NCBI RefSeq assembly: GCF_000758625.1
Contig: NZ_CP009283.1
Location: forward strand, 1,437,501-1,501,500
Length of the DNA stretch: 64,000 nt
Direction: 5' to 3'
From: Paenibacillus sp. FSL R7-0273
GTDB lineage: Bacteria > Bacillota > Bacilli > Paenibacillales > Paenibacillaceae
Below, one piece after another: positions 9,459 to 59,867 of the stretch; the first letter of the stretch is position 1, and each line of letters begins with the position of its first letter. The notes under the pieces are model-generated. The model ran no database searches and had not been told where the DNA came from. It worked only from the letters and a program-made list of their open reading frames with translations. The translations under genes were made by a program, and so were the position numbers.

Positions 9459-9529
9459 GCGGGTGTAGTTCAATGGTAGAACTTTAGCCTTCCAAGCTAA
9501 TAGCGTGGGTTCGATTCCCATCACCCGCT
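9459..9529 (+). tRNA. tRNA-Gly (TCC anticodon)
   Basis: 71-nt cloverleaf without encoded CCA. The acceptor stem GCGGGTG pairs with CACCCGC, the D loop is standard, the anticodon stem TTAGC/GCTAA frames the loop CTTCCAA (anticodon TCC), and the T loop is TTCGATT. Its 3' half is the attachment core of the prophage and is supplied by phage DNA after integration. Confidence 0.96.
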
Positions 9530-9535
9530 TATACA
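9484..9535. repeat. attL core (tRNA-Gly 3' half)
   Basis: 52 bp identical to 59077-59128. It begins at the anticodon stem (TTAGCC) and runs six bases past the tRNA discriminator base (TATACA). Flanking bases differ on both sides, which defines the repeat exactly. Confidence 0.95.
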
Positions 9536-25343: not shown

Positions 25344-25982
25344 TCAATTGTACTGAATACAATACTGTGAGAATTTTAATCCAAATGATGTGATATTAAC
25401 ATTTTGAACTGAATGTTCTTTTTTATCGCCTGACCACATGAAGTTTATTCGTGGAAGCTCCAAAAAGCCGAAATTCCGTAGTTTATTTACAGCTCCAACG
25501 AGTGCGTAAACATCATTTGCCGTGTTGGGTATTTTATCCAAAATAACGGGGGAATTATTTTGTGATAAGTAGGACATTACCTCAAAATCCAACAAGTTCA
25601 TTTCACTTAGTGTGTACAGGAAGTGCTTCTGTTCTTCAAAGTTTTGTTGGTCTGTTTGAGTTAGTGTAGAGAGCAAATATTTTTTGAAGTGCCTGAGCTT
25701 ATTTTCAGATATTTCACGTTCAACTTTTTCATTCAGTTCCTCAATCAGAAAAATCAACTCTTCTTGATTGAAATTACTAATATCAGGAAATTCAATTTTA
25801 AGTTGATTAACTGTTTCCGCTAATTCTTTATAGAACGATTCGAGTCGCTTAAATCGTTTCTCTTCCCTTGCACCAAAGTATAACGTGGCAAGGGAGCCTC
25901 CAATATAAGGGATGAGCTGTAAACAAGATTCGGCAACTAAGCTAGTCCATTCTTTCCCATTCAATCTTTCAGTGTTTTCCAT
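25344..25982 (-). CDS. reverse-strand moron, unknown function
   Basis: 212-aa protein read against its phage neighbours, AT-rich, with its own promoter and facing a terminator. One weak hydrophobic segment occurs near residues 18-33 (LQLIPYIGGSLATLYFG), then a charged helical region (residues 40-120) and a mixed C-terminal part that may be a winged helix. No catalytic motif. Such lysogeny-expressed genes between early and late regions often act in superinfection exclusion or defence, but nothing in the sequence proves it. Confidence 0.75.
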   Translation of the reverse strand: MENTERLNGKEWTSLVAESCLQLIPYIGGSLATLYFGAREEKRFKRLESFYKELAETVNQLKIEFPDISNFNQEELIFLIEELNEKVEREISENKLRHFKKYLLSTLTQTDQQNFEEQKHFLYTLSEMNLLDFEVMSYLSQNNSPVILDKIPNTANDVYALVGAVNKLRNFGFLELPRINFMWSGDKKEHSVQNVNITSFGLKFSQYCIQYN

Positions 25983-51658: not shown

Positions 51659-51865
51659 GTGAATAAAGTGGATTGGAAAGCAAAGTTGTCCAGTCGTAAG
51701 TTTTGGGCGCTGGTTGCTGCATTGGCCACCTCGATCCTGGGGGCCGTAGGTGCTTCAGACGATACAGCGGTTAAAATTACAGGAATCATAGCAGCTGTAG
51801 GTGCCTGTGCCGTATATATGCTGGCTGAAGCCATTACGGATGCTAATAATTCAGATAAAGAATAA
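51659..51865 (+). CDS. putative holin
   Basis: 68 aa with two TM helices (FWALVAALATSILGAVGA and ITGIIAAVGACAVYMLAEAI) and charged ends, typical of small holins placed next to an endolysin. GTG start after GGAGG. Confidence 0.75.
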   Translation: MNKVDWKAKLSSRKFWALVAALATSILGAVGASDDTAVKITGIIAAVGACAVYMLAEAITDANNSDKE

Positions 51866-51908
51866 AAATAAGAACCCACCTCGTTAGTATTTGAGGTGGG
51901 TTCTTTAA
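51866..51908. terminator. bidirectional terminator
   Basis: Near-perfect 13-bp stem (AAGAACCCACCTC with GAGGTGGGTTCTT) with T-rich flanks on both strands. Ends the late operon and the convergent membrane gene. Confidence 0.85.
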
Positions 51909-51910
51909 AT

Positions 51911-52222
51911 TTAATCAATTAGAGCTAAGGCTGAGGAGACTTCGATATCAGAACGAGGCTGCTTTTGATTACAGAGCTCTTTTTCAATGTTATGTACTCT
52001 TAGATTAATCGATTGTAAGTTATCCAGGATAGCAGCAAACGCAAGGATAAACACACAAATTAATAATCCACCTATCCAGTAGGATAGCATAATACCCCAA
52101 GCAAAATTATTAAAAGTTAACGGAAAATCTGTATACTTACCTGCGGTGTTACCAACAATGATCCCGAAAATGTACACCGACACAAACTCGGCATATGCTA
52201 TGATTTTTAAAGCTCTGACCAA
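51911..52222 (-). CDS. two-TM membrane protein, moron
   Basis: 103 aa: TM helices at about 12-28 and 44-66 and a cytoplasmic coiled tail (DNLQSINLRVHNIEKEL). TTG start after CAGGAGGAACTAG. AT-rich and reverse to the late genes, so likely expressed in the lysogen. Unknown function. Confidence 0.65.
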   Translation of the reverse strand: MVRALKIIAYAEFVSVYIFGIIVGNTAGKYTDFPLTFNNFAWGIMLSYWIGGLLICVFILAFAAILDNLQSINLRVHNIEKELCNQKQPRSDIEVSSALALID

Positions 52223-52292
52223 AACTAGTTCCTCCTGTATTGGTTTTAGTTCGAGCTTAACATGATCTCAGTGTATTGTGTACGATAAATAT

Positions 52293-52320
52293 TATGCCCA
52301 CTGGCTTTGCTTGTGGGCAT
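52293..52320. other. hairpin in intergenic region
   Basis: ATGCCCAC and GTGGGCAT form an 8-bp stem with no T run on either strand; not a clear terminator. Possible protein-binding or RNA element. Confidence 0.35.
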
Positions 52321-52429
52321 TGCAAGATAGATAGTTAAAAAACTTGAATAAGAACCTGTGTTCGTATATTATGAAGCATATAGGTCGAATGTAACAAAAA
52401 TTCCCTACCAAAATTCTACAATTTATTGT

Positions 52430-52490
52430 AAAATAAAAAACAGACAAAAGGCGGCTACCTTAATGTCTGTTGAAAAATCAATTTGCAATT
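52430..52490 (-). ncRNA. candidate small RNA
   Basis: Reverse strand. A consensus-like promoter (TTGCAA, 17 bp, TATAAT at 52525-52497) predicts a start near 52490. An intrinsic terminator follows directly: AACAGACA/TGTCTGTT stem enclosing a second AAGG/CCTT stem, then TTTTTTATTTTA. The product would be about 60 nt with no open frame. Divergent from the three-gene cargo operon. Resembles antitoxin RNAs of type I systems, but no toxin gene is seen beside it. Confidence 0.6.
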
Positions 52491-52496
52491 AAGTTA

Positions 52497-52525
52497 ATTA
52501 TACCATTGTAATCTTCTAATTGCAA
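52497..52525 (-). promoter_or_regulatory. strong promoter for the small RNA
   Basis: TTGCAA (52520-52525), 17-bp spacer, TATAAT (52497-52502), reading leftward. Confidence 0.7.
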
Positions 52526-52578
52526 AAGCGTTTTTATCAATAGTCATTTCAGACGCCCCTTAACTGAGGGGGATATCT

Positions 52579-53784
52579 TTGATCACTGAAAGAGTTTTAA
52601 AAAATGTACACATTCAAGAATTGAAAGATTTTTGTACTGCTTTCAAGGTAAAAGGGCGATCAACTAGAATTGAGGCTGCGACTACTAGAATGCGGTACAC
52701 TAAGTATCAAACATTGATTGAGGAAGAGTTGGCTGATGAAGATGTAAGCTTTTCAGCAAGTGACTTTGATAATTTTTTATTTGATCAGCTGTATTATTCA
52801 AATAACAATTTGCATTATCTTTACCAATTTGATCAATGTAGTTTAAATGCTAATTTTGATGCTGATGATGTGCATGATTTTTTTGACGGAAAGAATTCTT
52901 TGAATTTTAACTTGAGTCTGACTGACTGGGATGACAATACAGATAAAATTAATCCTTGTACCACACGCGTTGAATATAATGATAATGGTTTTTTAAAAGC
53001 GTTGCACATTTTGTTACGGATAGATGTTCTGGCACAAGATAACGGTCCAACGAGCGCTTTCTGTGGCATCAATATAAATTTTGAGTCTAATTTTGTTTTG
53101 ATTAAATTTAATCAATTGCAGTTCACTCTTATTAACGGTGAACCATTAAGCATTATTAAATCTATTCAAGACACCGTATGTGGATTAACTTCTTTCGGAA
53201 GAGCGTTTCAATGTCTTAACTTAAATATTATTTCTTTGAATGAAGATAGTGCATTAACCACAATTTACAACATGTTTGCTGAACTTAGCCTTGAAGCCGA
53301 ACAATTATTAGATCTGCAGATGCCGCCTCAAAACATTAAACTAATAACTGATTTTTTAACATCACTTGGTCTAAGTGATATTAAGGAAGAGTATATAGAA
53401 CAGATAAAGGCTGTGGTGTATCAGGATATAAGCAGCAAAATGTTGTCTCAAATTTTTGTAAAAGGATGGGTTTTTAAGTTTTCTTTCAGGGAAGGTGACC
53501 ATAGCAAGGCATCCTCAAATGCTGAAAAGAGATTACCTGTTTATAGTTACAAAGCATTTTGGCAATTAAAAGAAATAATTCATGAAATGGAGAAAATGAA
53601 CGAAGGGGGATTTCATTGGATCATCAATAATAAATTAGAGAATTTTGTAGATGTGCGAATGGAATCAAGAACTGGCACTATTGTAATCAATTATTATGCT
53701 AAGTTAAGAACTGGAAGAAAGGAGAAAGAAGATTATGTATTACGAAAAATTGTTGAACATTTTCCAGAAGAATCAATTATCTAG
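52579..53784 (+). CDS. cargo operon gene 1, unknown 401-aa protein
   Basis: No family recognised. Soluble, rich in Asn, Asp and Phe. The N-terminal 50 residues (LKDFCTAFKVKGRSTRIEAA) look like a SAP-like helical motif, which could bind nucleic acid. The middle (about 85-230) is beta-rich, and the C-terminal part (250-400) mixes helices with a beta sheet (WVFKFSFREGD, GTIVINYYAKL). TTG start after GAGGGGGATATC, with a CCCCTTAACTGAGGGG hairpin over the RBS region. Strongly AT-rich. Probable sensor or regulator of the SLATT protein two genes on; inference. Confidence 0.75.
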   Translation: MITERVLKNVHIQELKDFCTAFKVKGRSTRIEAATTRMRYTKYQTLIEEELADEDVSFSASDFDNFLFDQLYYSNNNLHYLYQFDQCSLNANFDADDVHDFFDGKNSLNFNLSLTDWDDNTDKINPCTTRVEYNDNGFLKALHILLRIDVLAQDNGPTSAFCGININFESNFVLIKFNQLQFTLINGEPLSIIKSIQDTVCGLTSFGRAFQCLNLNIISLNEDSALTTIYNMFAELSLEAEQLLDLQMPPQNIKLITDFLTSLGLSDIKEEYIEQIKAVVYQDISSKMLSQIFVKGWVFKFSFREGDHSKASSNAEKRLPVYSYKAFWQLKEIIHEMEKMNEGGFHWIINNKLENFVDVRMESRTGTIVINYYAKLRTGRKEKEDYVLRKIVEHFPEESII

Positions 53785-54379
53785 ATATTTCTCTTTATCC
53801 TTAGTTCAATATTTGGATGAGTTTATTGATTGGAATCTCAATAAAAGCAAGAGAGATCTAAGCCCTTTTCATTTTGCTAATCTTGCTGGTATTAAGTCAG
53901 ACCAAGCTCTCCGATTCTTTATGTATTATGCTAGAGAGGGAGGTATTTTTGAATTAGTTTATTTTTTTGAATGTAGTACTTTGACTTGTGGAGAACGCAT
54001 ATATTTGGATGCCGATAGTTCAAGAGAAGTAAATTATAGGTTGTTTTGCGACGAATGCGCAAAAAGCTATAACTCGAATGAAATTAAACGTTACATTAAA
54101 ATATACTTTCACCTTAAGGAAAAGATTTATGAGAATGTTGTTGAAGATAATGTATATGATCCTAATTGTGCATTTGATGCAATAAATAGGATGCCTGATG
54201 ATTTAAAGTTGGAATCCCCTTCATCTTCCATCAATATTGAGTCCACTACAAGTGGAGGGGAGAACACAGTTATCAACACTGTGACTTTAGAACAAGTAAT
54301 TGAAATTAACCAAAATAGTGAACAACCTATTATTACAGACCCTTTCTTGCTTGAAATGACGACATTTATACATTCATAA
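53735..54379 (+). CDS. cargo operon gene 2, zinc-ribbon protein
   Basis: 214 aa. An N-terminal helical, wHTH-like region (FHFANLAGIKSDQALRFFMY) is followed by a likely zinc site (ECSTLTCGERI ... FCDECAKSY) and a long Ser/Thr/Asn-rich C-terminal stretch. Overlaps gene 1 by 50 bases with its own RBS (AAAGGAGAAAGAAGATT), so expression is coupled. No known family. Possibly an adaptor between gene 1 and the membrane protein. Confidence 0.72.
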   Translation: MYYEKLLNIFQKNQLSRYFSLSLVQYLDEFIDWNLNKSKRDLSPFHFANLAGIKSDQALRFFMYYAREGGIFELVYFFECSTLTCGERIYLDADSSREVNYRLFCDECAKSYNSNEIKRYIKIYFHLKEKIYENVVEDNVYDPNCAFDAINRMPDDLKLESPSSSINIESTTSGGENTVINTVTLEQVIEINQNSEQPIITDPFLLEMTTFIHS

Positions 54380-54395
54380 TAAATTAGGTGAACCG

Positions 54396-54905
54396 ATGGA
54401 GCAAAATGAGCACTTAGAATCAAGTACTAAATTAAAATATTTAGCCGAAATCATAAAAGCTGACATGAATGGTAGTAAAGCAGCAGGAACTGATTTTAGA
54501 CATTGGGCAAAGTGGCTTAAAATAACTACGATAGTTTTATCCGCCTTAATAACAATCATCCTTGGTTTGACTTTTAATTCAGAAGCCGAATTAAATGGTG
54601 TGCCTGTTGTGAATTTAGTGAAGAATATTGCTGTTATTTTAAGTGCGTTATTAACTGCTGTTAATACGTGGGATGCCTTTGCCAATTATCAAATTAGATC
54701 GACACAAGAATTTTCAATTATTCAAAAACTTAGTTTATTATATAAGGATATTAGTTTACACCTAATCCAAAAAGAGAATTGTAAAATTACAGACTTTGAG
54801 AGCTTTAAGTCAAGATATGATGTTATTCACGAAGAATACAGCCAAGAACGAAACACTTCGAAGGATGAAGGGAAAAAAGAGAACTCGACAGAACCATCAA
54901 CCTAG
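54396..54905 (+). CDS. cargo operon gene 3, SLATT-type two-TM protein
   Basis: 169 aa. Two TM helices (ITTIVLSALITIILGLTF and NIAVILSALLTAVNTWDAF) sit between a helical N-terminus and a long amphipathic helix (RSTQEFSIIQKLSLLYKDIS). This is the arrangement of SLATT (DUF4231-like) domains, which are predicted pore-forming effectors in several bacterial conflict systems, including SMODS- and SLOG-linked ones. 17 bases after gene 2. Effector role here is inference from architecture. Confidence 0.75.
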   Translation: MEQNEHLESSTKLKYLAEIIKADMNGSKAAGTDFRHWAKWLKITTIVLSALITIILGLTFNSEAELNGVPVVNLVKNIAVILSALLTAVNTWDAFANYQIRSTQEFSIIQKLSLLYKDISLHLIQKENCKITDFESFKSRYDVIHEEYSQERNTSKDEGKKENSTEPST

Positions 54906-54957
54906 TAATAAAAAATCAATACATACTAATAAGATAGTCTTTATTAAATAATACTTT

Positions 54958-54986
54958 CCCACCCCCCGCATTAGTGGGGGGGTTTT
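54958..54986 (+). terminator. terminator of the cargo operon
   Basis: CCCCCC pairs with GGGGGG across an 8-nt loop, then TTTT. Confidence 0.75.
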
Positions 54987-55085
54987 ACGTTAAGGAAATT
55001 TCCTTACCTACATATACATAATGTTCCAGATTAATTATAATAAATTCAAGTGGAATGTTAAGAATTAATGTTTGGAGGGGCTTTT

Positions 55086-55262
55086 GTGAATAATCATGAT
55101 CCAGATAAAAAGATACACGAGCTTGAAGAACGAATTTCAAGGCTAGAGAAATCATCTGCTAACGGACCTAGAAAGTTTGTTTGGACCGCATTAAGCATTA
55201 TTATTGGATTTTTTATTATTCTTACAGTAATTGGAGTTATTCAATTCGTTTCTGCAGGTTAG
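55086..55262 (+). CDS. 58-aa single-TM protein
   Basis: GTG at 55086 after TTGGAGGGGCTTTT; the frame opens at 55068 but that start overlaps the RBS. A coiled N-terminus (KIHELEERISRLEKS) is followed by one TM helix (SIIIGFFIILTVIGVIQFV). Unknown. Confidence 0.6.
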   Translation: MNNHDPDKKIHELEERISRLEKSSANGPRKFVWTALSIIIGFFIILTVIGVIQFVSAG

Positions 55263-59076: not shown

Positions 59077-59128
59077 TTAGCCTTCCAAGCTAATAGCGTG
59101 GGTTCGATTCCCATCACCCGCTTATACA
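59077..59128. repeat. attR core (displaced tRNA-Gly 3' fragment)
   Basis: Perfect 52-bp copy of 9484-9535, lacking the 5' half of the tRNA, so not a functional tRNA. It marks the right end of the prophage. Confidence 0.95.
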
Positions 59129-59272: not shown

Positions 59273-59324
59273 GTTTTCTTAATCTGTATGGTAAACTTTA
59301 GGAAAGTAATCTGGAGGGATGGAT

Positions 59325-59867
59325 ATGCATAAGGGAATTTTAGCATTGCTGTTGGTAGTTGTACTAACTGCCTGCGGATCTTCGGATGCCGGTCTTACCA
59401 CGAAAGATTTAGCCATACAAAAGGTGAATGATGATAAAGCGGTTGTTAAATATGGAATGAGCCGTGAAGCTGCGGAGAAGGTGCTCGGCCAGGGTGAAAA
59501 AGCCGGTCTTGGTGATTCATTCTCCTATAGCTCTGGAGTAAGGGTTATGTACCGGGATGATAATGTGGCAGGCATTTATCTTACTGAGGAATCAGAATCT
59601 GCTTATGAGACGGCCGGCGGTATGAAAGTAGGCATGCAAAGTGACGAGATTAGGAAGATTTACGGAGATCAAGCTCTGAGTGATCTTGAGAAGAACCTGG
59701 ATTATGCGTACGATTCAGACAATAAGCAGTTTATACAAGGAACAGAATGGGCCAAAGCATTTGACGATGATACAAAAATCTATTTAATTTCCGTTTTATT
59801 TGATGGCGAAGGAAGCGCCGACACCATTCTGCTAACCGACAGGCAAATGGCGATGACGTTTAGATAA
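59325..59867 (+). CDS. putative lipoprotein
   Basis: 180 aa with a lipobox signal (ILALLLVVVLTAC). The mature part has MSREAAEKVLGQ and MKVGMQSDEIRKIYGDQA, a twofold BLIP/SmpA-like pattern. ATG at 59325 fits the GGAGGG spacing better than ATG at 59319. First chromosomal gene after attR. Function unknown. Confidence 0.78.
   Translation: MHKGILALLLVVVLTACGSSDAGLTTKDLAIQKVNDDKAVVKYGMSREAAEKVLGQGEKAGLGDSFSYSSGVRVMYRDDNVAGIYLTEESESAYETAGGMKVGMQSDEIRKIYGDQALSDLEKNLDYAYDSDNKQFIQGTEWAKAFDDDTKIYLISVLFDGEGSADTILLTDRQMAMTFR

What the first reader, a model, noticed from the sequence alone, without database searches (positions are those of the whole stretch)
52579..54905. Three-gene SLATT-containing operon, candidate new defence system
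An AT-rich, coupled operon in the classic prophage cargo slot: an unrecognised 401-aa protein with a SAP-like N-terminus, a 214-aa zinc-ribbon protein overlapping it by 50 bp, and a two-TM SLATT-type protein. SLATT proteins are predicted membrane-killing effectors switched on by partner sensors. There is no nucleotidyltransferase, SLOG or reverse transcriptase here, so the sensing half would be new: gene 1 as sensor, gene 2 as adaptor.
Basis: partly seen in the sequence, partly recalled or inferred. Interest (0 to 1): 0.78.

Follow-up and report, generated by a model that had tools for sequence, protein, structure and literature searches.

The report
Prophage defence operon with swappable effectors
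A prophage in a Paenibacillus-like genome carries two unknown genes that recur as a tight pair beside one of three interchangeable predicted cell-damaging parts, which looks like an undescribed modular antiviral system.

Summary
Gene 3 is a SLATT_1 protein (47.6 bits, cutoff 41). Genes 1 (gA) and 2 (gB) match no curated family. Profile searches gave 27 distinct loci in Bacilli and viral contigs. gB follows gA in 27 of 27, starting 32-50 bp before gA's stop in the same relative frame. The trio is not fixed: the effector is SLATT in 6, an unrelated two-helix membrane protein (TM2) in 19, and in 2 no membrane gene follows but gB is fused to a weakly Mrr-like nuclease domain. Supported branches of the gA tree force at least three effector changes. 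One distant gA reaches Pfam's SAP cutoff; gB is a zinc-ribbon protein. Sibling prophages hold other genes in the same slot, once a reverse transcriptase plus an OLD ATPase. Best reading: a modular abortive-infection-type system, gA sensing, gB linking it to a replaceable killer. There are no phage or toxicity data and no predicted structure, so sensor and adaptor roles are inference.

The parts
52579..53784 (+). gA, 401 aa, candidate sensor
   Evidence: (no family)
52579..52713 (+). N-terminal region of gA that aligns with the SAP-like start of subtype II relatives (inferred, no hit in this protein itself)
53735..54379 (+). gB, 214 aa, zinc-ribbon protein, candidate adaptor
53972..54058 (+). 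four-cysteine zinc-ribbon stretch of gB (C80 to C108)
53735..53784 (+). gA/gB overlap (50 bp), likely translational coupling
54396..54905 (+). gC, 169 aa, SLATT membrane protein, candidate effector
54456..54836 (+). SLATT_1 domain of gC (residues 21-147)
54962..54981 (+). terminator-like stem-loop after gC
   Evidence: consensus scan only
52556..52571 (+). stem-loop whose right arm contains the GAGGGG in front of gA; possible control of gA translation
   Evidence: (consensus scan only)

Best explanation
An undescribed modular antiviral (abortive-infection-type) operon of Bacilli prophages and other mobile elements. Shown: gA and gB form a constant, overlapping pair, and the third element is exchanged between two membrane-protein families or replaced by a nuclease-like domain fused to gB's C-terminus. 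Inferred: gA detects an infecting phage, probably its DNA or a nucleoprotein state, through its SAP-like N-terminus; gB, joined to gA by its N-terminal and zinc-ribbon part, passes the signal through its C-terminal tail to the effector; SLATT (or TM2) then permeabilises the membrane, or the fused domain cuts DNA, and the competing phage is stopped.
For: gB follows gA with overlap in 27 of 27 loci; every gB is found by the gB profiles and every TM2 by the TM2 profile (27 of 27 and 19 of 19; the profiles contain many of these rows). Effectors: SLATT 6, TM2 19, gB fusion 2. SLATT and TM2 profiles do not align (hhalign probability 0.8%), while gA, gB and TM2 of the two subtypes do (97.0, 97.8, 99.2%). 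Starred branches of the gA tree force at least 3 effector changes. Fused domain: Mrr_cat E 0.023 and 0.0059, with EKG..LE, QID and CECKNE kept in both. Sporadic: gA subtype I in 3 and subtype II in 7 of the same 394 family genomes. Variable slot: of 31 viral contigs with the marker gene 3 carry the operon and 18 others have other genes between lysin and marker, one of them a reverse transcriptase (E 1.3e-13 to 7r08) and an OLD-family ATPase (E 3.9e-12 to 6p74). SLATT is required for defence in DRT10 (PMC12632851, passages).
Against: No phage, toxicity or induction data. gA has no PADLOC hit and gB only one weak hit in one relative (Cas12f zinc ribbon, E 0.023). Structure prediction could not be had. 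SAP is detectable in 3 of 6 subtype II gA scanned, above cutoff in 1, and not in the window's gA. Both Mrr_cat scores are below Pfam's cutoff. On the gB tree the effector changes are poorly supported. One SLATT row (L015) scores E 0.016 with the subtype II TM2 profile, so a remote kinship of the two membrane families is not fully excluded. Some of the other genes in the slot (L065, L070) look like tail genes by eye, so the slot is not purely a defence slot.
Confidence: 0.66

Rival explanations
1. Phage lysis-timing genes: the membrane protein is an accessory holin or antiholin and gA and gB control it.
For: In the window and in 9 of 20 loci tested a peptidoglycan hydrolase lies nearby.
Against: Other loci lie by integrase, recombinase or XRE genes (L010, L011, L013, L016, L017), by smpB (L009) or on a plasmid (L035); two have no membrane gene; 18 sibling contigs have a related lysin but no gA in the stretch held.
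Confidence: 0.1
2. Addiction or toxin-antitoxin-like module: gA and gB hold a toxic membrane protein in check and loss of the prophage frees it.
For: Small coupled operon with a predicted toxic membrane protein on mobile elements; PMC12632851 discusses SLATT toxicity held back in uninfected cells (passages).
Against: A 401-aa partner with a SAP-type relative plus a second conserved protein is more than an antitoxin needs; the toxic part is joined to gB in two loci. Not excluded: defence and addiction can be the same module.
Confidence: 0.14
3. A regulator pair of the phage itself (for example late-gene or lysogeny control) with an unrelated membrane gene behind it.
For: gB has a zinc ribbon and relatives of gA a SAP domain, both found in regulators; some loci sit in lysogeny modules.
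Against: A membrane or nuclease partner is present in 27 of 27 loci in operonic position; a plain regulator would not need it. The pair is rare, in 10 of 394 family genomes together.
Confidence: 0.07

Closest known systems
DRT10 and DRT9 (defence reverse transcriptases with SLATT proteins)
   Same: A SLATT membrane protein in an operon with a non-membrane partner; in DRT10 SLATT is required for defence (PMC12632851 and PMC12483538, passages). The window's gC also scores with PADLOC's RT-associated SLATT profile, E 9.2e-07.
   Different: No RT among gA, gB or gC and no Rfam RNA match; two unknown proteins take that place, and SLATT is replaceable.
CBASS- and SLOG-type nucleotide-signal systems with 2TM or SLATT effectors (Burroughs et al. 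2015, recalled; described in PMC7159879, passages)
   Same: A constant sensing part with exchangeable membrane or nuclease effectors
   Different: No nucleotidyltransferase or SLOG hit; no nucleotide messenger is apparent
DUF5939 (PF19363)
   Same: gB of L037, L052 and L053 score above its cutoff over the N-terminal and zinc-ribbon stretch
   Different: Only positions 15-118 of 281 are covered; the window's gB does not match. That DUF5939 sits before nucleotide cyclase domains is recalled, not tested.
Mrr-type restriction endonucleases (PF04471)
   Same: C-terminal part of gB in L036 and L051
   Different: Sub-threshold in both; fused to a zinc-ribbon adaptor with a SAP-type partner

Membership tests
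SLATT effectors | Profile match above a curated cutoff | tested here: met
   NF033634 47.6 bits, cutoff 41; 6 of 6 operon relatives match it at E<=0.01, bits shown only for the window; Pfam SLATT_5 below cutoff, 18.8 against 29.5
SLATT effectors | Two transmembrane helices | tested here: met
   Hydropathy segments 37-64 and 68-96
DRT9/DRT10 | Reverse transcriptase in the operon | tested here: not met
   No RT family for gA, gB or gC in Pfam, NCBIfam, PADLOC or PHROGs
DRT9/DRT10 | Structured ncRNA upstream | tested here: inconclusive
   No Rfam match at E<=1 in 51850-55100; a new RNA would be missed
CBASS/SLOG systems | Nucleotidyltransferase or SLOG partner | tested here: not met
   No such hit for gA or gB
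SAP-domain proteins (gA) | PF02037 above cutoff | tested here: not met
   Window gA: none. Relatives: L052 24.5 bits against 23.9 is above; L037 17.1 below; L036, L038, L051, L053 no PF02037 hit
DUF5939 (gB) | PF19363 above cutoff | tested here: not met
   Window gB: none. Subtype II: above in L037, L052, L053; below in L036 and L051; none in L038
Mrr/PD-(D/E)XK nucleases (gB C-terminus in L036, L051) | Mrr_cat profile and E, D, ExK residues | tested here: inconclusive
   15.2 and 17.2 bits against 21; residues present by reading; no PDB match for the L036 domain
Antiphage defence system | Protects against phage | not testable with these tools
   Needs a bench test

The most novel reading that the evidence does not exclude
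A new immune system class of Bacilli in which a SAP-type protein and a zinc-ribbon adaptor form a constant sensing core that accepts structurally unrelated effectors (SLATT, an unnamed two-helix membrane family, a PD-(D/E)XK-type nuclease), with no nucleotide messenger: direct protein-to-effector signalling from DNA recognition to a membrane killer.
Probability: 0.5. Interest if true: 0.78.

Novelty: new variant of a known kind. Interest (0 to 1): 0.66.

Why it matters
SLATT proteins are predicted pores whose known or proposed triggers are tied to reverse transcriptases and nucleotide signals. A two-protein core that fires SLATT, another membrane protein or a nuclease would show how a sensor with no evident enzyme signature can be wired to very different killers, and would give a compact test set for asking what opens SLATT. 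It also names a second effector family (TM2) and gives profiles by which the system can be counted.

Tried and rejected
A single-sequence search with gB found 2 proteins, its own included, the profile 6. gA of three loci has no tblastn match in 50,697 phage records, nor gC; plasmids gave one decayed copy for the window's gA and none for L037 gA or L036 gB. Viral scans with the first subtype II gA alignment, with L036 gB and with TM2 found no relatives; a wider gA alignment then found four loci with TM2, so those three scans were insensitive and do not show absence. PDB sequence searches gave nothing significant for gA, SLATT, TM2 or the fused domain; gB only weak zinc-ribbon hits, best E 0.01. 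The A14-type flank search in phages gave endolysin matches only. DUF5939 sought in 19 genomes and 14 controls: nothing rang anywhere, so it says nothing.

Rejected: family hits of gA and gB with E above 0.1 (EF-G-binding, SF3A3, PRK05541, phrog_9202) as chance; LeoB for TM2 (best E 0.0016 in 2 of 9) as too weak; TM2 as a divergent SLATT (but see the E 0.016 row). In print: nine searches gave no listed paper that by title, abstract start or passage describes gA or gB; listings were capped, and the library lacks most subscription journals.

The broken gA of L008 and the truncated one of L035 were left out of the gA trees; L008 gB was left out of the gB tree. The contexts of most of the 18 proteins were not seen. 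In the slot test 28 of 31 contigs show no gA; 18 were listed; the other 10 had no clear lysin upstream in the stretch held (L089 a short partial hit, L083 a hit on the other strand). Neighbours were one per locus for 20 of the loci, chosen by eye as most telling.

Full report
Observation. Three co-directional ORFs lie at 52579-53784 (gA, 401 aa), 53735-54379 (gB, 214 aa) and 54396-54905 (gC, 169 aa), with a 50-bp gA/gB overlap and 16 bp between gB and gC. GC is 0.325-0.333 over 52-55 kb, against 0.505-0.539 to the left and 0.383 rising to 0.443 over the 2 kb to the right. The window is G000:C1:1437501-1501500 of a 7.29-Mb genome; named relatives are Paenibacillus, Cohnella, Bacillus, Priestia, Litchfieldia, Evansella, Heyndrickxia and Aneurinibacillus. 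The prophage is bounded by a 52-bp exact repeat of the tRNA-Gly 3' end at 9484-9535 and 59077-59128; the operon sits between an endolysin gene (Peptidase_M15_4) and the right end.

Single genes. gC matches NCBIfam SLATT_1 above its cutoff; all six operon SLATT proteins match that model at E<=0.01. gA and gB have no significant match in Pfam, NCBIfam, PADLOC or PHROGs. gA has 18 proteins at E<=1e-3 in a database of 5.77 billion, the window's own included; gB has 2 by single sequence and 6 by profile, own included.

Conservation. A gA profile found 8 loci in species genomes and 5 in viral contigs. In all 13 gB follows gA. Gene 3 is SLATT in L014, L015, L017, L018 and in L004 (G253), and another membrane protein of about 200 aa (TM2) in L006-L013 and L016. 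SLATT and TM2 profiles do not align (probability 0.8%); in a direct scan SLATT rows score at best E 0.016 (effective database 1000) with a TM2 profile. A gB profile over 394 family genomes hit 6: three with gA, and three (G256, G338, G097) with gA relatives too distant for the first search. Their gA aligns over full length (hhalign 97.0%, E 8.8e-11), gB at 97.8%, TM2 at 99.2%. A subtype II gA profile over the same 394 genomes hit 7, all with gB; four more came from viral contigs, all with gB and TM2. A decayed copy lies on a Priestia megaterium plasmid.

Count. 27 distinct loci (window, L004, L006-L018, L035-L038, L051-L058). gA then gB in 27 of 27, with gA broken in L008 and both genes truncated in L035; SLATT 6, TM2 19, nuclease-like domain fused to gB 2 (L036, L051). 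Each gB row is found by the subtype I gB profile (27 of 27, worst E 1.6e-07) and each TM2 row by the subtype I TM2 profile (19 of 19, worst E 4.7e-07). The aligned gB start lies 32-50 bp before gA's stop, 2 modulo 3 in 27 of 27 (in L038 the aligned start is one codon before the ATG). Distances of gA and gB in 14 subtype I loci correlate (r 0.80, 0 of 10,000 permutations as high); linked genes would show this anyway.

Effector exchange. In L036 and L051 gB continues into about 200 aa with weak Mrr_cat similarity (E 0.023 and 0.0059, both below the cutoff) and EKG..LE, QID and CECKNE kept in both; no membrane gene follows. On the gA tree (25 rows) the fusion is one clade and SLATT falls in two starred clades parted by TM2 rows; starred branches force at least 3 changes of the TM2 label and 2 of SLATT. 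On a gB tree (21 rows) starred branches force 2 and 1, so gB alone does not settle it. A viral scan with the SLATT alignment returned only the four operon contigs already known.

Domains. SAP (PF02037) is above cutoff in L052's gA (24.5 against 23.9) and below in L037; SAP_new25 is below cutoff in L037, L051 and L052; L036, L038 and L053 have neither; the window's gA has neither. The four-cysteine pattern is in 21 of 22 gB proteins scanned. DUF5939 is above cutoff in 3 of 6 subtype II gB. Across six gA of both subtypes the invariant charged residues are D129, E231 and E332 in L037 numbering; no catalytic site stands out, and I take gA as a binding protein (inference).

Context. Of 20 neighbours, one per locus, chosen by eye, 9 are peptidoglycan hydrolases as in phage lysis cassettes, 4 integrases or recombinases, 1 an XRE-type regulator, 1 SmpB, 1 an Mrr endonuclease, 2 ordinary genes, and 2 had no family. 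A 71-aa marker gene right of the operon occurs in 31 viral contigs; 3 have the operon, and in 18 others a lysin lies upstream with other genes between, in some of which (L065, L070) tail-like genes by eye. In L074 these are a reverse transcriptase (best PDB match 7r08, E 1.3e-13; UG15 chains next) and an OLD-family ATPase (6p74, E 3.9e-12). So the slot holds exchangeable genes, at least once of a kind known from defence.

Mechanism. Shown: a constant pair, exchange of effectors, and one effector joined to gB's C-terminus. Inferred: gB's C-terminus is where effectors couple, so gB is the adaptor and gA the sensor; membrane effectors permeabilise, the nuclease cuts DNA. That SLATT is needed for defence is shown elsewhere, in DRT10 (PMC12632851, passages); its pore role is a prediction.

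Limits. No structure was obtained. Distribution counts are for the genomes sampled: gA subtype I in 3 of 394 family (single-sequence search), 3 of 398 class and 1 of 398 phylum genomes, the own genome counted in each. No experiment bears on function. Papers PMC12632851, PMC12483538, PMC7159879 and PMC9122126 were seen as passages only.

Noticed in passing
window 9484-9535 and 59077-59128: A 52-bp exact repeat bounds a prophage of about 49.6 kb at tRNA-Gly; sheath- and tape-measure-like genes by eye suggest a contractile tail.
   Followed up: partly
window 25344-25982 (-): A 212-aa minus-strand ORF in a second GC-poor patch (0.398 at 25-26 kb) of the prophage; possible second cargo gene.
   Followed up: no
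window 51911-52222 (-): 103-aa small membrane protein between lysis genes and operon, on the other strand, with no significant family match.
   Followed up: partly
window 52556-52571: A stem-loop overlaps the GAGGGG in front of gA and could hide it; not compared with other loci.
   Followed up: no
L074:1882-5507: A reverse transcriptase followed by an OLD-family ATPase sits in the same cargo slot of a sibling prophage; a possible defence pair.
   Followed up: partly
L091:2696-5740: Three genes (128, 466, 417 aa) in the same slot; the first looks like a histone-fold protein by eye (recalled, untested).
   Followed up: no
L076:3554-6103: 849-aa protein in the same slot, no PDB sequence match at E<=0.01.
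   Followed up: partly
L038 and L041 (G097); L004 and L040 (G253): Two copies of the operon in one genome, about 60 kb apart in G097 (11.7 kb identical) and on two contigs in G253 (99.7% over 3.9 kb; operon identical); duplicated prophage or assembly effect.
   Followed up: partly
L053:8184-9200 (-): An Mrr restriction endonuclease gene lies near this copy of the operon.
   Followed up: no
window 59319-59867: A lipoprotein gene just outside attR resembles, by eye, genes inside the cargo slot of L063 and L064.
   Followed up: no
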